A stretch of 22,128 nucleotides of DNA from a virus: positions 1 through 22,128 of IMG/VR virus record IMGVR_UViG_3300040801_003013; one strand, given 5' to 3'. The position numbers and the translations under genes are program-made. Below are positions 95-21,129 of this stretch, in pieces; within the stretch, counting starts at the first letter, position 1; each line of letters opens with the position of its first letter. Below the pieces are notes generated by a model. The model was not told the origin of the DNA, made no database searches, and was given only the letters and a program-made list of their open reading frames with translations.

Positions 95-322
95 TTAGTC
101 TTCCATCATATCGACAAAATGTTCCACGTCTGAAGGTAGCGGGGCGTTAGGCTTCCCGTCCATCTCGTTCACGACCTGCTCTGCGGCCTTGATGAAGCGG
201 TCAGCGGGGCGGCGGTTTGCGTACCACCGAAGGTAGCTTGGGTAGTTATCGGCAAGCCATCCGAGGGTCTTGCCCCGGTGTTTACCGATCTGCATACTAG
301 CGAGGCGGGGGTCATGTTTCAT
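95..322 (-). CDS. Small ExoX-C-like (DUF3820-type) protein
   Basis: The 75-residue product contains IGKHRGKTLGWLADNYPSYL followed by RWYANR. This resembles the 'GKhkGk.l.el...YL.W' motif of the exodeoxyribonuclease X C-terminal domain and of DUF3820 proteins. That small domain occurs alone in many phages; its role is unclear, though nucleic-acid processing is a common guess. The frame is open to 466, but ATG 322 is preferred: GGAG lies 9 nt upstream and the ATG overlaps the TGA of the zinc-ribbon gene (ATGA), implying coupled translation. The frame upstream of 322 duplicates the other gene's coding DNA and reads as low-quality protein. An alternative ATG at 355 lacks a ribosome binding site. 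Confidence 0.7.
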   Translation of the reverse strand: MKHDPRLASMQIGKHRGKTLGWLADNYPSYLRWYANRRPADRFIKAAEQVVNEMDGKPNAPLPSDVEHFVDMMED

Positions 323-579
323 CGTCTTGGTCTCCGTGTTTTTTTTCGTTTCCATGCTGCTTGAGCTTGTTGCTTGCGTTCCCGTGTATCCCCTTGGTAC
401 GCACGGGGGCGGCCCGGTGCGGCTGGTTTCGGCGTGAAGGCTTTCCCGCACGCCTTGGACGTGCATCTGTAGCGATGCTCCCCGCTGGGGGCGGGGCCAT
501 GCTTGCGGGTCTTGGTGCCGCAGTGGGGGCAGGGTGGGTTAGTCATTGGCGGGGTGGGTAGTGACAAGGGGCGATACAC
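319..579 (-). CDS. Small zinc-ribbon protein with basic tail
   Basis: The frame encodes CPHC, then about 18 residues, then C-x4-C (CTSKAC), then GKAFTPK. This is a two-knuckle zinc ribbon resembling the N-terminal domain of IS1 InsA-type and related transposase-associated proteins. It is followed by a very basic C-terminus containing GRPRAY and KRKKTRRPRR, which should bind nucleic acid. No catalytic transposase domain follows, so this is a stand-alone DNA-binding protein rather than an insertion sequence. The start is uncertain: GTG at 579 gives 86 residues, ATG at 546 (MTNPPCPHC) gives 75 and is at least as likely. Its stop overlaps the next gene by four bases (ATGA). Function unknown; possibly a phage regulator. 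Confidence 0.6.
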   Translation of the reverse strand: MYRPLSLPTPPMTNPPCPHCGTKTRKHGPAPSGEHRYRCTSKACGKAFTPKPAAPGRPRAYQGDTRERKQQAQAAWKRKKTRRPRR

Positions 580-1170: not shown

Positions 1171-1698
1171 ATGACTATTTTACGATCCGAACGCGCTACG
1201 GTGCGATTCTTTGATGGACTCTCCATTGATGGCTACCGAATGCCAGATGGAGAGTTTCGAGTTTCTTTGACGGGGGCGAGTGTCCTACTGGGATTTAGCA
1301 AGGAATGGCTAGGGCGCATCCTTTCCAAAAACGGCAACCCGGTCAAAGCCTTGCAGGGTATGGGGTTCACGGGACAGATCAAGAAAGCGGCAACCCGGTC
1401 TATTCGTGGAGGCGGTGATTCCGCTCAGACTATTTCGATCCGTGATCTCAATGCCTTGATTCTTTACGCGGCTACCAAGGGCAAACCCCAAGCGATCGCA
1501 CTTCAGATGGCCCTGACGGACATGGCCTTGACGGACTTTTTCCGCGATGCCTTTGGGATGCGTCCCCTTGATATCAATGAGAAGCGGGCGCGGTTCTATG
1601 CTGCCTTCGCTGCGACTCTCACCCCTGCCGATTGGCGGGCATGGGATCGGGATGATGTGACGGCGATCAATGAACACTTGATGATACTGGGGGAGTGA
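1171..1698 (+). CDS. KilA/BRO-like cyanobacterial mobile-element protein, short form
   Basis: The 175-residue protein has an N-terminal beta-rich stretch (YRMPDGEFRVSLTGASVLLGF, about residues 22-42), a helical part with WLGRILSKNG, then TISIRDLNALILYAATKGKP and an end containing LTDFFRDAFGM. This resembles a family common in cyanobacterial genomes and mobile elements, with a layout similar to KilA-N/BRO or antirepressor-like DNA-binding proteins; the function is unproven. It is homologous to the minus-strand gene at about 20.4-21.06 kb: both have GEF.V followed by the segment around the [FS]DAFG[ML] motif. The start has only a weak ribosome binding site (AGG, 6 nt upstream). Its stop overlaps the start of the HNH gene (TGATG), so the two are probably co-translated. 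Confidence 0.65.
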   Translation: MTILRSERATVRFFDGLSIDGYRMPDGEFRVSLTGASVLLGFSKEWLGRILSKNGNPVKALQGMGFTGQIKKAATRSIRGGGDSAQTISIRDLNALILYAATKGKPQAIALQMALTDMALTDFFRDAFGMRPLDINEKRARFYAAFAATLTPADWRAWDRDDVTAINEHLMILGE

Positions 1699-2113: not shown

Positions 2114-2140
2114 GCCCCGCTCCCCCGGCGGGGCTTTTTA
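2114..2140 (+). terminator. Rho-independent terminator after HNH gene
   Basis: GCCCCGC (2114-2120) and GCGGGGC (2128-2134) form a perfect 7-bp GC stem around a 7-nt loop, followed by TTTTTA. It insulates the KilA/HNH unit from the tail-fibre operon. Confidence 0.9.
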
Positions 2141-2488
2141 GTGTGCCCCCATTCTCAATAGCATCGTCTATTGCCTACTGTCATCAATGACAGCCCCTTT
2201 GTCAGTGACAGCCAGGACAGCCGCCCCGCATAGGTTCTAAGCACTGTCACCACTGTCACCGCCATTAGAGAGAATAAATACAATCGCCCCCTAGGGGTAC
2301 AAATCGGATCATCGGTACCAAGGGGGAGTTTCAGAGGGGTTGCAAAAGTTGGTGACAGTGGTGACAGTAGCCAGGGCATAGGCTCTGTATAGGTTCTAGC
2401 TGTCACCAAGAAAGGGGCTGTCACCGTGACAGCGGGTGACAGTGACAATGGGCAGGGGGGATAGAATGGGAATAAATGGTAATCATTC
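2141..2488. repeat. Non-coding region with GGTGACAG repeat array
   Basis: No gene is supported in this gap. The 8-mer CTGTCACC (or its complement GGTGACAG) occurs seven times: 2244-2251, 2253-2260, 2351-2358, 2360-2367, 2400-2407, 2418-2425 and 2435-2442. Two tandem pairs form a perfect 18-bp inverted repeat (2243-2260 against 2351-2368, GGTGACAGTGGTGACAGT on the right). Further TGTCA/TGACA palindromes lie at 2178-2193 (CTGTCAT-CA-ATGACAG), 2200-2210 and 2418-2432 (CTGTCAC-C-GTGACAG). ATAGGTTCTA is repeated directly at 2230-2239 and 2389-2398, each time just before CTGTCACC copies. The layout suggests a multi-site binding region for a regulator, replication protein or transposase. Confidence 0.85.
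2451..2467 (+). promoter_or_regulatory. Candidate promoter of tail-fibre operon
   Basis: GGCAGGGGGGATAGAAT ends 21 bases before the ATG at 2489. TAGAAT is a good -10 match, and almost the same sequence occurs at 1061-1075 upstream of the KilA/HNH unit. The rightmost GTGACA of the repeat array (2442-2447) lies where a -35 region would be, though the 14-base spacing is short. A repeat-binding protein could therefore control this promoter. Confidence 0.4.
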
Positions 2489-4164: not shown

Positions 4165-4704
4165 CTACGCATCCTCCGTCACCTCCACTAGTGCCAACTC
4201 ACGCGCCGCCAACTTCACTTTAAACAGGTCATTACTGGGCCGCGAATACCATTCGAGCAAGTCCGATCCCGCCTCTAGGATCACATCAAACTGAGGCCAG
4301 AAAAAGTTAAACCCCGTGGGCGGTGTCCCGGTGAACGTCCCAACCTTGGCACGGGTGCGGGGGGTTCGCTCCATTAACACCAACCGCTGATCCAACAACC
4401 GGATCGCCGTGTCGGTTTGCTGCGTCTTAATCCGGTGTTGCTGTTCTTCCCAGAGGGCGATCAACGGATAGAGTTTGTCCGGTAGCAATTGCAGCCCCCA
4501 AGCGAACTGATACCGCGCTGCGAAGAATGGCCCCTCAAAGTAACTCGCCCCGTAGAACGATTCCCCCGCCGTCATCTGTTGCGCCACATCTTTAAACCGC
4601 TGATAACCCAGCCCCCCGTATTGGCTCCCATCGAAGTCCTCCGCTGTCAGGGTGAGAGACAGCGATCCGATGTTTAGGGTTTGGGTTGTTCCGATGGGGA
4701 TCAT
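4165..4704 (-). CDS. Putative distal/minor tail protein
   Basis: I do not recognise a named family in these 179 residues. The N-terminus (IGTTQTLNIGSLSLTLTAED) is beta-rich, the middle has an aromatic stretch (SFYGASYFEGPFFAARYQFAWG, about residues 49-70), then a helix (LIALWEEQQHRIKTQQTD) and a beta-rich end (GTPPTGFNFFWPQFDVILEAGS). This mixed composition and its position as last gene after the tape measure fit a tail-tip or minor tail protein, like distal tail proteins in other siphophages. ATG 4704 follows the stop of the upstream gene by three bases. Confidence 0.6.
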   Translation of the reverse strand: MIPIGTTQTLNIGSLSLTLTAEDFDGSQYGGLGYQRFKDVAQQMTAGESFYGASYFEGPFFAARYQFAWGLQLLPDKLYPLIALWEEQQHRIKTQQTDTAIRLLDQRLVLMERTPRTRAKVGTFTGTPPTGFNFFWPQFDVILEAGSDLLEWYSRPSNDLFKVKLAARELALVEVTEDA

Positions 4705-17125: not shown

Positions 17126-18196
17126 ATGACGAAAACACAGAGAGCCGAATCGTCCGTAACGGTATCCCCTGAGATGCAAAAGCGTGTTGATGCAAAAATA
17201 GCCGAAGCCTACGGCCCACGGGGAAACTCGAAAACACGATCGACGATGGATGAAGTCGAAAACATCCCCTCCAGTGAAATACGCCCCGTGCTTTCTCAAT
17301 ATATGGACGCTAAAAAATCAGCGCCACCGGGGGACATTGTTTTAGTGAAGTCTCAAGACGGGGACTTCTACGATACATTCTTTGATGATGCTGTTAAATT
17401 CAGTGAAGCCGGGGACACTGGTGCTGTCGTGTCTTTTGAAACTTCGGGAGATCCCGCCGGGCCAATCGTGCCCATGGTGGGCGTTCCGGCTCATGCAATC
17501 GAGCGATTCGCACGGAACACTGTTAACAATGGTTTCTCTTTAACAGTTGTCGAACCGGGGGATGCTCCGAAGACCTCAAAGAAAAAAACCACCCCACCAC
17601 CCGTCGCCAAGAAGACTGACACCCCGCCGCCTGCCGCCAAGTCTCCGTCTGAACCCAGAGACCCGGTGTTTGTCAAGAGGGAAGAGCAAGAAACACGAAT
17701 AATTAATGAGGCAATCTCAGACACAGAGTTATCCATTAAACGTCAGCAGTCCATTGTTGACACTACCTACGACCCCATCGAAAAAGAATCGAGGCAAAAA
17801 CGATTAGACAGCAAAAAGCGAACACTGAAAACATTGAACGGTAAGCGAGATGAGATCGTCAATAAAATTCGCGGTATTGAGCAGGTATCTAAATGGGTCA
17901 ATGAGGGCGAATCGGCAAAAACCAAAAAAGGCAAGCTCAATCGCAAAACCGACGGACGAACGCTCCCGCCGGTTTCGGGTCGTGACCATGGCGATGGCGT
18001 TTTTGTTGGAGACAATGGCTCTGTTTTCCTTGACGGGTACGCCGTCGCCAATAGCACAAGCAAGAAAAGCGCGGCAGGCATAGCAGCGGCGTTGAAAAAT
18101 CTCCCTGGGAAAAGCGGAGACATTGACGCACTTTCGCCAAGCGAAAGAAAATCCGTAACGGCGGAGATCAAACGCCGACTAGATCTATTCAAATAA
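17126..18196 (+). CDS. Stand-alone MutS domain I-like protein
   Basis: Of 356 residues, about 56-145 align with MutS domain I, the mismatch-reading domain: QYMDAKKSAPPGDIVLV, then DGDFYDTFFDDAVKFSE, then PIVPMVGVPAHAIERFA, then GFSLTVVEPGD. E. coli MutS has the same order (GDFYELFYDDAK, PIPMAGIPYHAVENYL, SVAICEQIGD). The mismatch motif F-x-E reads F81-Y82-D83. No clamp, connector or ATPase domains follow, so it cannot be a working MutS. Residues 150-177 are a Pro/Lys linker (KKKTTPPPVAKKTDTPPPAA), 185-265 a charged coiled coil, and 275-356 an unrecognised domain. TKTQRAE and KTTPPP.AKKT are shared with the 19471 protein. It lies between portal and MuF genes. AGGA lies 10 nt before the ATG; an in-frame TAG excludes an upstream start. 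Confidence 0.8.
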   Translation: MTKTQRAESSVTVSPEMQKRVDAKIAEAYGPRGNSKTRSTMDEVENIPSSEIRPVLSQYMDAKKSAPPGDIVLVKSQDGDFYDTFFDDAVKFSEAGDTGAVVSFETSGDPAGPIVPMVGVPAHAIERFARNTVNNGFSLTVVEPGDAPKTSKKKTTPPPVAKKTDTPPPAAKSPSEPRDPVFVKREEQETRIINEAISDTELSIKRQQSIVDTTYDPIEKESRQKRLDSKKRTLKTLNGKRDEIVNKIRGIEQVSKWVNEGESAKTKKGKLNRKTDGRTLPPVSGRDHGDGVFVGDNGSVFLDGYAVANSTSKKSAAGIAAALKNLPGKSGDIDALSPSERKSVTAEIKRRLDLFK

Positions 18197-19470: not shown

Positions 19471-20391
19471 ATGGATATTACCCAAGCTCATATCGATGCA
19501 ATCCGCCGCCATATCGAAGTCTTGAGGAGGATGTACGCACCCCCACGACGGTACAGGGCGGGGCGTAACTGTAGGAAAGGGTACAACTGCGGTGGGTCGT
19601 GCATTAACCGGGGCTACGGCTGCCGCAAGGCCCTACAGGGTGAGGCTAAGAATTTCAGTGAGTGGATGGTCAATAAGATGTCCGCTGATATCGGTAAGGT
19701 CGTGGGGGATGCTCCCAAGGATAAGGTGAAGACAACAAAAACACAGAGAGCCGAACCCAAGGCAGAACCCATGAGCGACGAAATGAAAGAGGGTATCCGC
19801 ATCGGGGAAGAGATGAGGAAGCGGGACGAGCAAGCCAAGACCACCCCGCCGCCCGCCGCCAAGAAGACCACTAAGCGCAAGGCAAAACCAAAGGCAGAAT
19901 CTAAACCCAAGGCAGAACCGAAAGCACCCGCTAAGGCAGTAGAGAAGCCCCCTGAGCCAAAGGCTAAAGCCAAGCCCAAGGCAGAGCCGAAAGCACCCGC
20001 CGCCGCTAAGCCCAAACCACCCGCCGGCAAGAAACCCAAGAATCAGAAGGAATTCAATAAAGGCGTACAGGATCGGCTGAAGTCTGGGCCTGTTGATGTC
20101 TTGGGATTACAGGATGAGATGGGGATGGACGATAAGCAATTCGCTAAGTTTGTGAATGACGGGATTGCGGCGGGTCAGTTCAATGCCAACCGAAAAGGGG
20201 ATAGCGGGTTTAACCCCCGCAAGGCAGCACAAGACACATTCGGCAAAGACTTCGCACAACTCACCGGCCCTGAGAAACAGCGACTATTCAAGCAACGAAA
20301 CGACAAGCAAAAGGCCGACGCAGAACGCCGCCGACGATTAGCTGACGCAGGGCTACCCCCTGACAAACAACTGATCGTAGGCGGTCGATAA
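19471..20391 (+). CDS. Leader-tagged Cys-knuckle protein with histone H1-like tail
   Basis: Chosen ATG gives 306 residues; a TTG at 19456 would overlap the MuF gene. Residues 1-23 are the shared leader (ITQAHIDAIRRHIEVLRRMY), 24-33 read PPRRYRAGRN, and C34-x5-C40-x3-C44-x6-C51 forms a four-Cys knuckle (CRKGYNCGGSCINRGYGC). Residues 86-131 hold KTTKTQRAE and AKTTPPPAAKKT, shared with the MutS-like protein. Residues 125-190 are Lys/Ala/Pro/Glu repeats (KAEPKAPAKA type) as in histone H1-like DNA binders. Residues about 195-250 (DRLKSGPVDVLGLQDEMGMD and onward) look like a small winged-helix-type fold. The C-terminus is basic. Function unknown; DNA or capsid-interior association is inferred. Confidence 0.7.
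   Translation: MDITQAHIDAIRRHIEVLRRMYAPPRRYRAGRNCRKGYNCGGSCINRGYGCRKALQGEAKNFSEWMVNKMSADIGKVVGDAPKDKVKTTKTQRAEPKAEPMSDEMKEGIRIGEEMRKRDEQAKTTPPPAAKKTTKRKAKPKAESKPKAEPKAPAKAVEKPPEPKAKAKPKAEPKAPAAAKPKPPAGKKPKNQKEFNKGVQDRLKSGPVDVLGLQDEMGMDDKQFAKFVNDGIAAGQFNANRKGDSGFNPRKAAQDTFGKDFAQLTGPEKQRLFKQRNDKQKADAERRRRLADAGLPPDKQLIVGGR
19906..20000 (+). repeat. Internal 26-bp direct repeat in Lys/Ala/Pro tail
   Basis: A 26-bp unit at 19906-19931 (CCCAAGGCAGAACCGAAAGC then ACCCGC) recurs at 19975-20000 with one difference (A to G). It encodes PKAEPKAPA. Related shorter units occur at 19757 and 19889. The length of this tail could change by slippage or recombination. Confidence 0.8.
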
Positions 20392-21059
20392 CCCACCCCA
20401 CCGGCTGCACCGTATCGCGCCACTAAACCACTACCCGCATCCCACGGGTTAATCCCGCACTCCATTAGGGTAGTGAGTCGCACTTGCACCCGGTTCAGGT
20501 TTACAAGGGTAGCGGCGGGGACTGTATCGCGCTCTCCACTCTTGACCCCTGCCTTGCTTTGCATGGCCCAGACAAATCGCTGATAATCACGGGATGAGGT
20601 GAACCCATGCGCCTTAAGTTGATCGGTGAGGGGGCGGAAATCGTGGCGCGTTGCCAGCCGTTCCACTAACCACCGCTGGCGATCGTCTGCCTCAAATTTC
20701 AGCCCAAAGGCATCCGAGAAAAGTTGATGCAGGGATAGACCGAACATTGACCGGACAAATTTACGGGCCGCCGGATTGCCCCGCTCTGACATAGCCAGCA
20801 CAATCTGAGCAAACGCTTCAAGGGTGACAACGTTGACCGCTTTGGGATGGATAGGGGTTTTCCATTTTTGGATCTCGTTGGTTTGGAAAGCCTCACCCGT
20901 CAAGGCTTTCAGTGCTTTTGCAGACCGATTTGATGGGATTAAATCGAGGTCTGCCATCTGTGGAATCGCTACGCCAAACTCGCCATTCTCGGACATCAAG
21001 CCCTTTATGCTGACGGGGCCGATCTTCACATCCGTAACCGATGCCTTTAAAATGCTCAT
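20175..21059 (-). CDS. KilA/BRO-like cyanobacterial mobile-element protein, long form
   Basis: From ATG 21059 the protein reads MSILKASVTDVKIGPVSIKG, then GEFGVAIPQMADL, LIPSNRSAKALKALTG, VVTLEAFAQIVLAMSERGNP and LHQLFSDAFGLKF. Order and motifs match the 1171-1698 protein, so the two are paralogues. An extra C-terminal part (DFRPLTDQLKAHGF, YQRFVWAMQSKAG, to MECGINPWDAG) follows. Beyond about 20436 the frame runs to a stop at 20175 antisense to the 19471 gene, giving low-quality sequence; the natural end of the protein was probably near 20436. It is the only minus-strand gene in the portal operon. TACAAT (21129-21124) and TAGAAT (21123-21118) suggest its own promoter. It looks like a moron or inserted gene. 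Confidence 0.65.
   Translation of the reverse strand: MSILKASVTDVKIGPVSIKGLMSENGEFGVAIPQMADLDLIPSNRSAKALKALTGEAFQTNEIQKWKTPIHPKAVNVVTLEAFAQIVLAMSERGNPAARKFVRSMFGLSLHQLFSDAFGLKFEADDRQRWLVERLATRHDFRPLTDQLKAHGFTSSRDYQRFVWAMQSKAGVKSGERDTVPAATLVNLNRVQVRLTTLMECGINPWDAGSGLVARYGAAGGVGYRPPTISCLSGGSPASANRRRRSASAFCLSFRCLNSRCFSGPVSCAKSLPNVSCAALRGLNPLSPFRLALN
20389..20440 (+). repeat. Intergenic cassette repeat, copy B
   Basis: This is the second copy of the spacer at 18194-18240, again starting at the stop codon of a cassette gene (TAACCC ... CCACCGG ... ACCACTACCC). After copy A comes TTAAAACAATG, the start of a leader-tagged gene; here that is missing and the sequence runs straight into the 3' part of the minus-strand KilA/BRO-like gene. 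The minus-strand gene seems to have been inserted at this point. Confidence 0.65.
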
Positions 21060-21117
21060 ACTGCCTAGTTGGTTTAGGTGGTCACGCCTCCCGGATGTTT
21101 GCGCATCGCGGGGGGGC

Positions 21118-21129
21118 ATTCTAATTGTA
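21118..21129 (-). promoter_or_regulatory. Candidate promoter of inserted minus-strand gene
   Basis: On the minus strand GTACAATTAGAATG offers two overlapping -10 candidates, TACAAT (21129-21124) and TAGAAT (21123-21118), about 60 bases before ATG 21059. No strong -35 box is visible. An own promoter is expected for a gene opposing the operon in which it sits. Confidence 0.35.

What the first reader, a model, noticed from the sequence alone, without database searches (positions are those of the whole stretch)
2141..2488. Dense GGTGACAG array with an 18-bp perfect inverted repeat upstream of the tail-fibre operon
Seven perfect 8-mers plus at least four degenerate ones in about 270 bases, as tandem pairs 9 bp apart, an 18-bp inverted repeat with arms about 90 bases apart, and three short palindromes. 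ATAGGTTCTA is directly repeated as part of a larger unit. This density cannot be explained by coding or HIP1. Candidate roles: operator array or enhancer for phage promoters, transposase internal activation sequence, replication iterons, or a recombination site for tail-fibre exchange. The rightmost copy abuts the candidate promoter at 2451-2467.
Basis: partly seen in the sequence, partly recalled or inferred. Interest (0 to 1): 0.68.

Follow-up and report, generated by a model that had tools for sequence, protein, structure and literature searches.

The report
Phage replication origin beside tail-fibre genes
The repeat cluster is very probably a replication origin of the kind used by phage P4 and related elements, where two rings of a phage-encoded helicase are thought to assemble; it is a well-formed new example in a cyanobacterial phage, unusual mainly because its matching helicase gene is not on the same DNA fragment.

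Summary
Seven exact GGTGACAG copies lie at 2244-2442, with four further TGACAG cores, and the 18-bp inverted repeat is at 2243-2260/2351-2368. The array is one large dyad centred near 2305.5: 10 of 11 sites pair with a mirror site within 1 bp. Independent two-strand arrays of this word sit next to VapE, D5/DUF5906, AAA_25 or DUF927 primase-helicase genes in phages and bacteria of several phyla. The reverse test agrees: viral loci chosen only for their VapE-type helicase carry iteron arrays, usually just 3' of the gene, with a similar layout even where the word differs. Phage P4's annotated origin repeats (GGTGAACAG) are the nearest characterised relative. Best explanation: an iteron replication origin for a self-loading hexameric initiator helicase. 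Caveats: no initiator gene was found on this 22-kb fragment, the central spacer is only mildly AT-rich, no close relative of the phage was found, and nothing has been tested at the bench.

The parts
2114..2134 (+). intrinsic-terminator-like hairpin with T run after the HNH gene; left border of the intergenic region
2178..2442 (.). whole dyad iteron array (candidate replication origin), centre near 2305.5
2178..2183 (-). outer left TGACAG core (degenerate, ATGACAG); mirror of 2427 (off by 1)
2188..2193 (+). TGACAG core; mirror of 2418
2205..2211 (+). GTGACAG iteron; mirror of 2400
2244..2251 (-). inner left iteron (GGTGACAG); mirror of 2360
2253..2260 (-). inner left iteron (GGTGACAG), 9 bp from its partner; mirror of 2351
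2261..2350 (.). central spacer, 90 bp, 48% GC; most AT-rich 25 bp (32% GC) at its left edge: candidate melting region
2351..2358 (+). inner right iteron (GGTGACAG)
2360..2367 (+). inner right iteron (GGTGACAG), 9 bp from its partner
2400..2407 (-). flanking iteron, opposite strand
2418..2425 (-). flanking iteron, opposite strand
2426..2432 (+). GTGACAG iteron; forms a short palindrome (2417-2433) with the preceding iteron
2435..2442 (+). outermost right iteron; the only site without a mirror partner
2210..2239 (+). direct repeat copy 1 (contains ATAGGTTCTA), unexplained accessory element
2369..2398 (+). direct repeat copy 2 (contains ATAGGTTCTA)

Best explanation
The array is a replication origin of the P4 / VapE / phage-inducible-island type. 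The 8-bp iterons would be bound by the DNA-binding domain of a phage-encoded hexameric initiator helicase (usually fused to or paired with a primase). The two mirror-image halves, each a tandem pair next to the spacer plus flanking iterons of both orientations, would each nucleate one helicase hexamer; the two hexamers would melt the ~90-bp spacer (AT-rich edge at about 2261-2285) and leave in opposite directions. SHOWN here: word, dyad, layout, and its recurrence beside such helicase genes. INFERRED: binding, double-hexamer assembly, melting, and that this phage encodes or uses a cognate initiator located off this contig.
For: Dyad: 10 of 11 sites mirror within 1 bp. Forward test: among loci found only by GGTGACAGnGGTGACAG, 14 of 35 loci with a two-strand array (at least 5 sites; window included) have a VapE/D5-type helicase within the locus, against 5 of 123 sparse loci (Fisher p = 3e-7) and 0 of 16 one-strand repeats; six further array loci carry AAA_25 or DUF927 proteins at or next to the array, and in 7 of 8 others examined as whole records a VapE, DUF5906 or AAA_25 gene is present within about 2 kb of the array. 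Reverse test: among 80 loci chosen by VapE-type protein alone, 31 distinct arrays of related words (GGTGACA, GTGGGAC, TTGGGAC, TGGTGCA, TGGGACA) were found, many starting within about 300 bp after the gene. Layout match: sites relative to centre are -57- -48- 48+ 58+ 97- 120+ 130+ in L261 and -58- -49- 49+ 58+ 98- 123+ 133+ in the window (all-random null 0.003). Named phages checked: Marinobacter phage PS3 shows the sign order -+--++-+ with the word GGTGACC just after its primase gene; Pseudomonas phage LPPA36 shows --+--++-+ with GGACAG. P4 record: 'ori type 1 repeat' GGTGAACAG, tandem and on both strands, at ori and crr. Literature: SaPI Rep helicases recognise iterons directly downstream of rep, apparently as two hexamers (PMC7581432); PICI origins always have two iteron sets flanking an AT-rich region (PMC6092414).
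Against: No initiator helicase or primase among the proteins of this 22-kb contig that were scanned, whereas in the other records the array is next to its helicase; the contig is probably a fragment, so absence is weak. The spacer is 48% GC against 55% for the window, a weaker dip than in the VapE loci (29-51% in loci of 54-71%). With the inner four sites fixed, the match of the outer sites to the VapE layouts is not significant by itself (0.11). Some head genes resemble those of Leptolyngbya phage Lsp-JY19, which has a DDE transposase, so replicative transposition cannot be excluded. P4 itself has the same kind of iterons but not the same spacing.
Confidence: 0.85

Rival explanations
1. Operator or enhancer array: a phage repressor or activator binds the repeats and controls the tail-fibre operon.
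For: The array ends 46 bp before the ATG of the 2489-2824 gene and contains palindromes.
Against: No sigma-70-like promoter found at 2050-2560 (consensus scan only). The same word and a similar layout recur beside helicase genes. A dyad of about 260 bp with a 90-bp empty centre is not a usual operator design.
Confidence: 0.05
2. Transposase binding sites or internal activation sequence of a Mu-like transposable phage.
For: Head genes are distantly Mu/B3-like (Mu F, Gp36, Gp37), and Lsp-JY19, a distant structural relative, carries a DDE transposase.
Against: Lsp-JY19 has no GGTGACAG at all. Array association elsewhere is with initiator helicases. There is no second cluster in the window.
Confidence: 0.03
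3. A recombination site for tail-fibre exchange (Din/Gin-like or homology-based).
For: It lies beside a fibre gene, and inverted repeats are present.
Against: No recombinase among the proteins scanned. The fibre gene is not flanked by a second copy of the array. Layout is shared with VapE-associated arrays.
Confidence: 0.02
4. A decoy or borrowed origin: the phage carries the array without its own initiator and uses, or titrates, an initiator of a satellite, plasmid or host element.
For: No initiator found on the contig; array is next to late genes instead of a helicase gene.
Against: The contig is probably incomplete; P4 also has an origin distant from its alpha gene.
Confidence: 0.05

Closest known systems
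Bacteriophage P4 ori/crr with type I iterons (initiator: alpha protein)
   Same: Near-identical word (GGTGAACAG versus GGTGACAG), tandem copies at about 9-11 bp, copies on both strands, array of 100-300 bp; one P4 origin lies away from the initiator gene.
   Different: The word here is one base shorter; P4 arrays lack the 97-bp dyad gap and the exact mirror layout; initiator of this phage not seen.
SaPI / PICI origins (Rep, a VapE/D5-type self-loading helicase)
   Same: Two sets of iterons flanking a spacer, recognised by the initiator helicase, apparently as two hexamers (PMC6092414, PMC7581432).
   Different: Those lie directly 3' of rep; here no rep is on the contig, the spacer is only mildly AT-rich, and this is a phage with head and tail genes. 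SaPI sequences were not compared directly.
Iteron arrays 3' of VapE-type primase-helicase genes, e.g. viral loci L261/L263 and Marinobacter phage PS3
   Same: Same or related word, similar sign order, spacings within about 1-3 bp for seven sites in the best matches.
   Different: Next to the helicase gene there, next to a tail-fibre gene here.

Membership tests
P4/VapE/PICI-type iteron replication origin | short iterons (about 8-9 bp) in tandem and on both strands | tested here: met
   7 exact 8-mers plus 4 cores at 2178-2442
P4/VapE/PICI-type iteron replication origin | two iteron sets flanking a central spacer | tested here: met
   mirror dyad about 2305.5 with 90-bp iteron-free spacer
P4/VapE/PICI-type iteron replication origin | spacer is AT-rich | tested here: inconclusive
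   48% GC versus 55% overall; 32% GC in the best 25 bp
P4/VapE/PICI-type iteron replication origin | word and spacing shared with arrays next to initiator helicase genes | tested here: met
P4/VapE/PICI-type iteron replication origin | cognate initiator helicase/primase encoded by the element | tested here: inconclusive
   none among the contig proteins scanned, but the contig is probably a fragment
P4/VapE/PICI-type iteron replication origin | drives autonomous replication; initiator binds the iterons | not testable with these tools
   needs bench work
Mu-type transposase end or activation sites | motif clusters at genome ends or in the early operator region | tested here: inconclusive
   single cluster in the window; genome ends not held; motif absent from Lsp-JY19
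Phage operator array | overlaps or abuts a promoter of the regulated operon | tested here: inconclusive
   no sigma-70-like promoter in 2050-2560, but this is a consensus scan only

The most novel reading that the evidence does not exclude
One origin architecture (mirror order - + -- | ++ - +, about 95-100 bp gap) is shared by phages and elements of many phyla and by helicases of different families (SF3 VapE/D5, AAA_25, DUF927), while the iteron word drifts (GGTGACAG, GTGGGAC, TTGGGAC, GGTGACC); and this cyanobacterial phage carries it in its late region, away from any initiator, as a remote, borrowed or decoy origin.
Probability: 0.3. Interest if true: 0.6.

Novelty: new member of a known kind. 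Interest (0 to 1): 0.45.

Why it matters
It turns an unexplained repeat cluster into a testable origin of replication in a probable cyanobacterial phage with no near relative in the collections searched, and it gives a sequence-plus-layout rule (word about GGTGACAG, mirror order, about 97-bp gap) by which origins of VapE/P4-type replicons can be recognised even where the initiator gene is missing from a contig. The shared layout with drifting words also offers a natural data set for working out how the helicase's binding domain reads its iterons.

Tried and rejected
Relatives of the phage: close-relative scans of viral contigs with the 2489-2824, 4165-4704 and capsid proteins found none; DNA searches of phages and plasmids with the region found no origin-like relative, so conservation among sister phages could not be tested. 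The capsid is 25-28% identical to Nodularia phages, Lsp-JY19 and RcapMu-like phages; portal relatives in cyanobacterial genomes are at most 34% identical. The tandem pair is rare in cyanobacterial genomes (2 of 386). Two cyanobacterial loci found by the motif have it inside DUF3987 primase-helicase genes, but scans for viral relatives of those genes found none. ATAGGTTCTA is not shared with other arrays. Looking only at the outer sites, the layout match to VapE loci is not significant (0.11). One-strand runs of the motif in other genomes show no SF3 helicase hit and were set aside as probably coding repeats. Corynebacterium phage Adelaide and an Oscillospirales phage have repeats after the VapE-type gene, but with other words and no clear mirror order.

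Full report
OBSERVATION. The window is a 22,128-base virus record. It holds a phage structural module: head protease, cement protein, major capsid (capsid relatives include Nodularia phages and Leptolyngbya phage Lsp-JY19), portal, Mu F-like and Gp36-like proteins, tape measure and a collagen-like fibre. HIP1 (GCGATCGC) at 0.86 per kb and the capsid relatives point to a cyanobacterial host. Between an HNH gene (1695-2087, followed by a terminator-like hairpin at 2114-2134) and the fibre-side gene at 2489 lies the reported array. Seven exact GGTGACAG copies lie at 2244-2442 (chance 0.67 in the whole window), and the 18-bp inverted repeat is exact.

Nearly all the repeats belong to one dyad. The 18-bp and the 31-bp inverted repeats share the centre 2305.5. 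Base by base, the positions 45-129 steps from that centre match 53 of 85, the best of any centre in the window (next 39, mean 21, sd 4.2). Of 11 TGACAG sites, 10 have a mirror partner within 1 bp; 3000 random placements never exceeded 8. Sign order is - + + - - [90 bp] + + - - + +.

FORWARD TEST. Collection scans for GGTGACAGnGGTGACAG gave 232 other loci; 34 of them, from several phyla, have a two-strand cluster of at least 5 sites in 400 bp. Fourteen of 35 such loci (window included) carry a VapE- or D5-type helicase in the stretch held, versus 5 of 123 loci with sparse sites and 0 of 16 with one-strand repeats (Fisher p = 3e-7). Others carry AAA_25 or DUF927 proteins at the array. For eight viral array loci without such a hit the whole record was searched: seven have VapE, DUF5906 or AAA_25 genes within about 2 kb of the array; the eighth is a 9.5-kb fragment.

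REVERSE TEST. Eighty viral loci were chosen by VapE-type primase-helicase protein only. Iteron arrays were found in many of them, often starting within about 300 bp after the gene; the word varies (GGTGACA, GTGGGAC, TTGGGAC, TGGTGCA, TGGGACA) while the layout stays similar. The window's inner and right-hand sites are nearly superimposable on L260/L261/L263. Against fully random placement the best match has a chance of 0.003; with the inner four sites fixed it is 0.11. Annotated phages agree: Marinobacter phage PS3 (- + - - + + - +, GGTGACC) and Pseudomonas phages U5 and LPPA36 (GGACAG) have arrays soon after the primase-helicase gene.

KNOWN KIND. The P4 record annotates 'ori type 1 repeats' GGTGAACAG at ori and crr. 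PICI origins have two iteron sets flanking an AT-rich region (PMC6092414), and SaPI Rep helicases bind iterons just downstream of rep, apparently as two hexamers (PMC7581432). A VapE initiator found here matches a solved VapE structure (7pds), and a D5-type one weakly matches D5-family primase-helicases (7ola among them).

MECHANISM. Best explanation: iteron origin for a self-loading hexameric initiator helicase; each half nucleates one hexamer, the spacer melts, forks leave in both directions. Word, dyad, layout and gene association are shown; binding, melting and the identity of the initiator are inferred.

WEAK POINTS. No initiator was found among the contig proteins scanned. The spacer is only mildly AT-rich. 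No sister phage is available. The head genes are distantly related to those of transposable phages, so the replication mode of this phage is not proved.

VERDICT.

Noticed in passing
window 17126-18196 (+): A phage protein among the head genes carries a MutS domain I match (PF01624, 1.3e-11), also seen as phrog_8439; function in a virion-gene setting is unclear.
   Followed up: no
window 1171-1698 (+) and 20175-21119 (-): The 1171-1698 protein (phrog_32599) is 45% identical to Planktothrix phage PaV-LD ORF068; by eye the protein at 20175-21119 shares its motif pattern, so the phage may carry two paralogues.
   Followed up: partly
window 2210-2239 and 2369-2398: ATAGGTTCTA-containing 30-bp direct repeat inside the array, each copy running on into CTGTCACC; not found in other arrays.
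   Followed up: partly
L129 576-2288; L158 1990-3909: In two cyanobacterial genomes GGTGACAG-type sites cluster inside DUF3987 primase-helicase genes, suggesting origins embedded in the initiator gene.
   Followed up: partly
L260-L339: Iteron words near VapE-type genes differ between loci (GGTGACA, GTGGGAC, TTGGGAC, TGGTGCA) with the layout largely kept: a natural set for decoding initiator specificity.
   Followed up: partly
window 319-579 (-): Small ORF with a weak match to Lar-like restriction alleviation proteins (phrog_6422, 1e-4), overlapping the ORF at 95-466 on the same strand.
   Followed up: no
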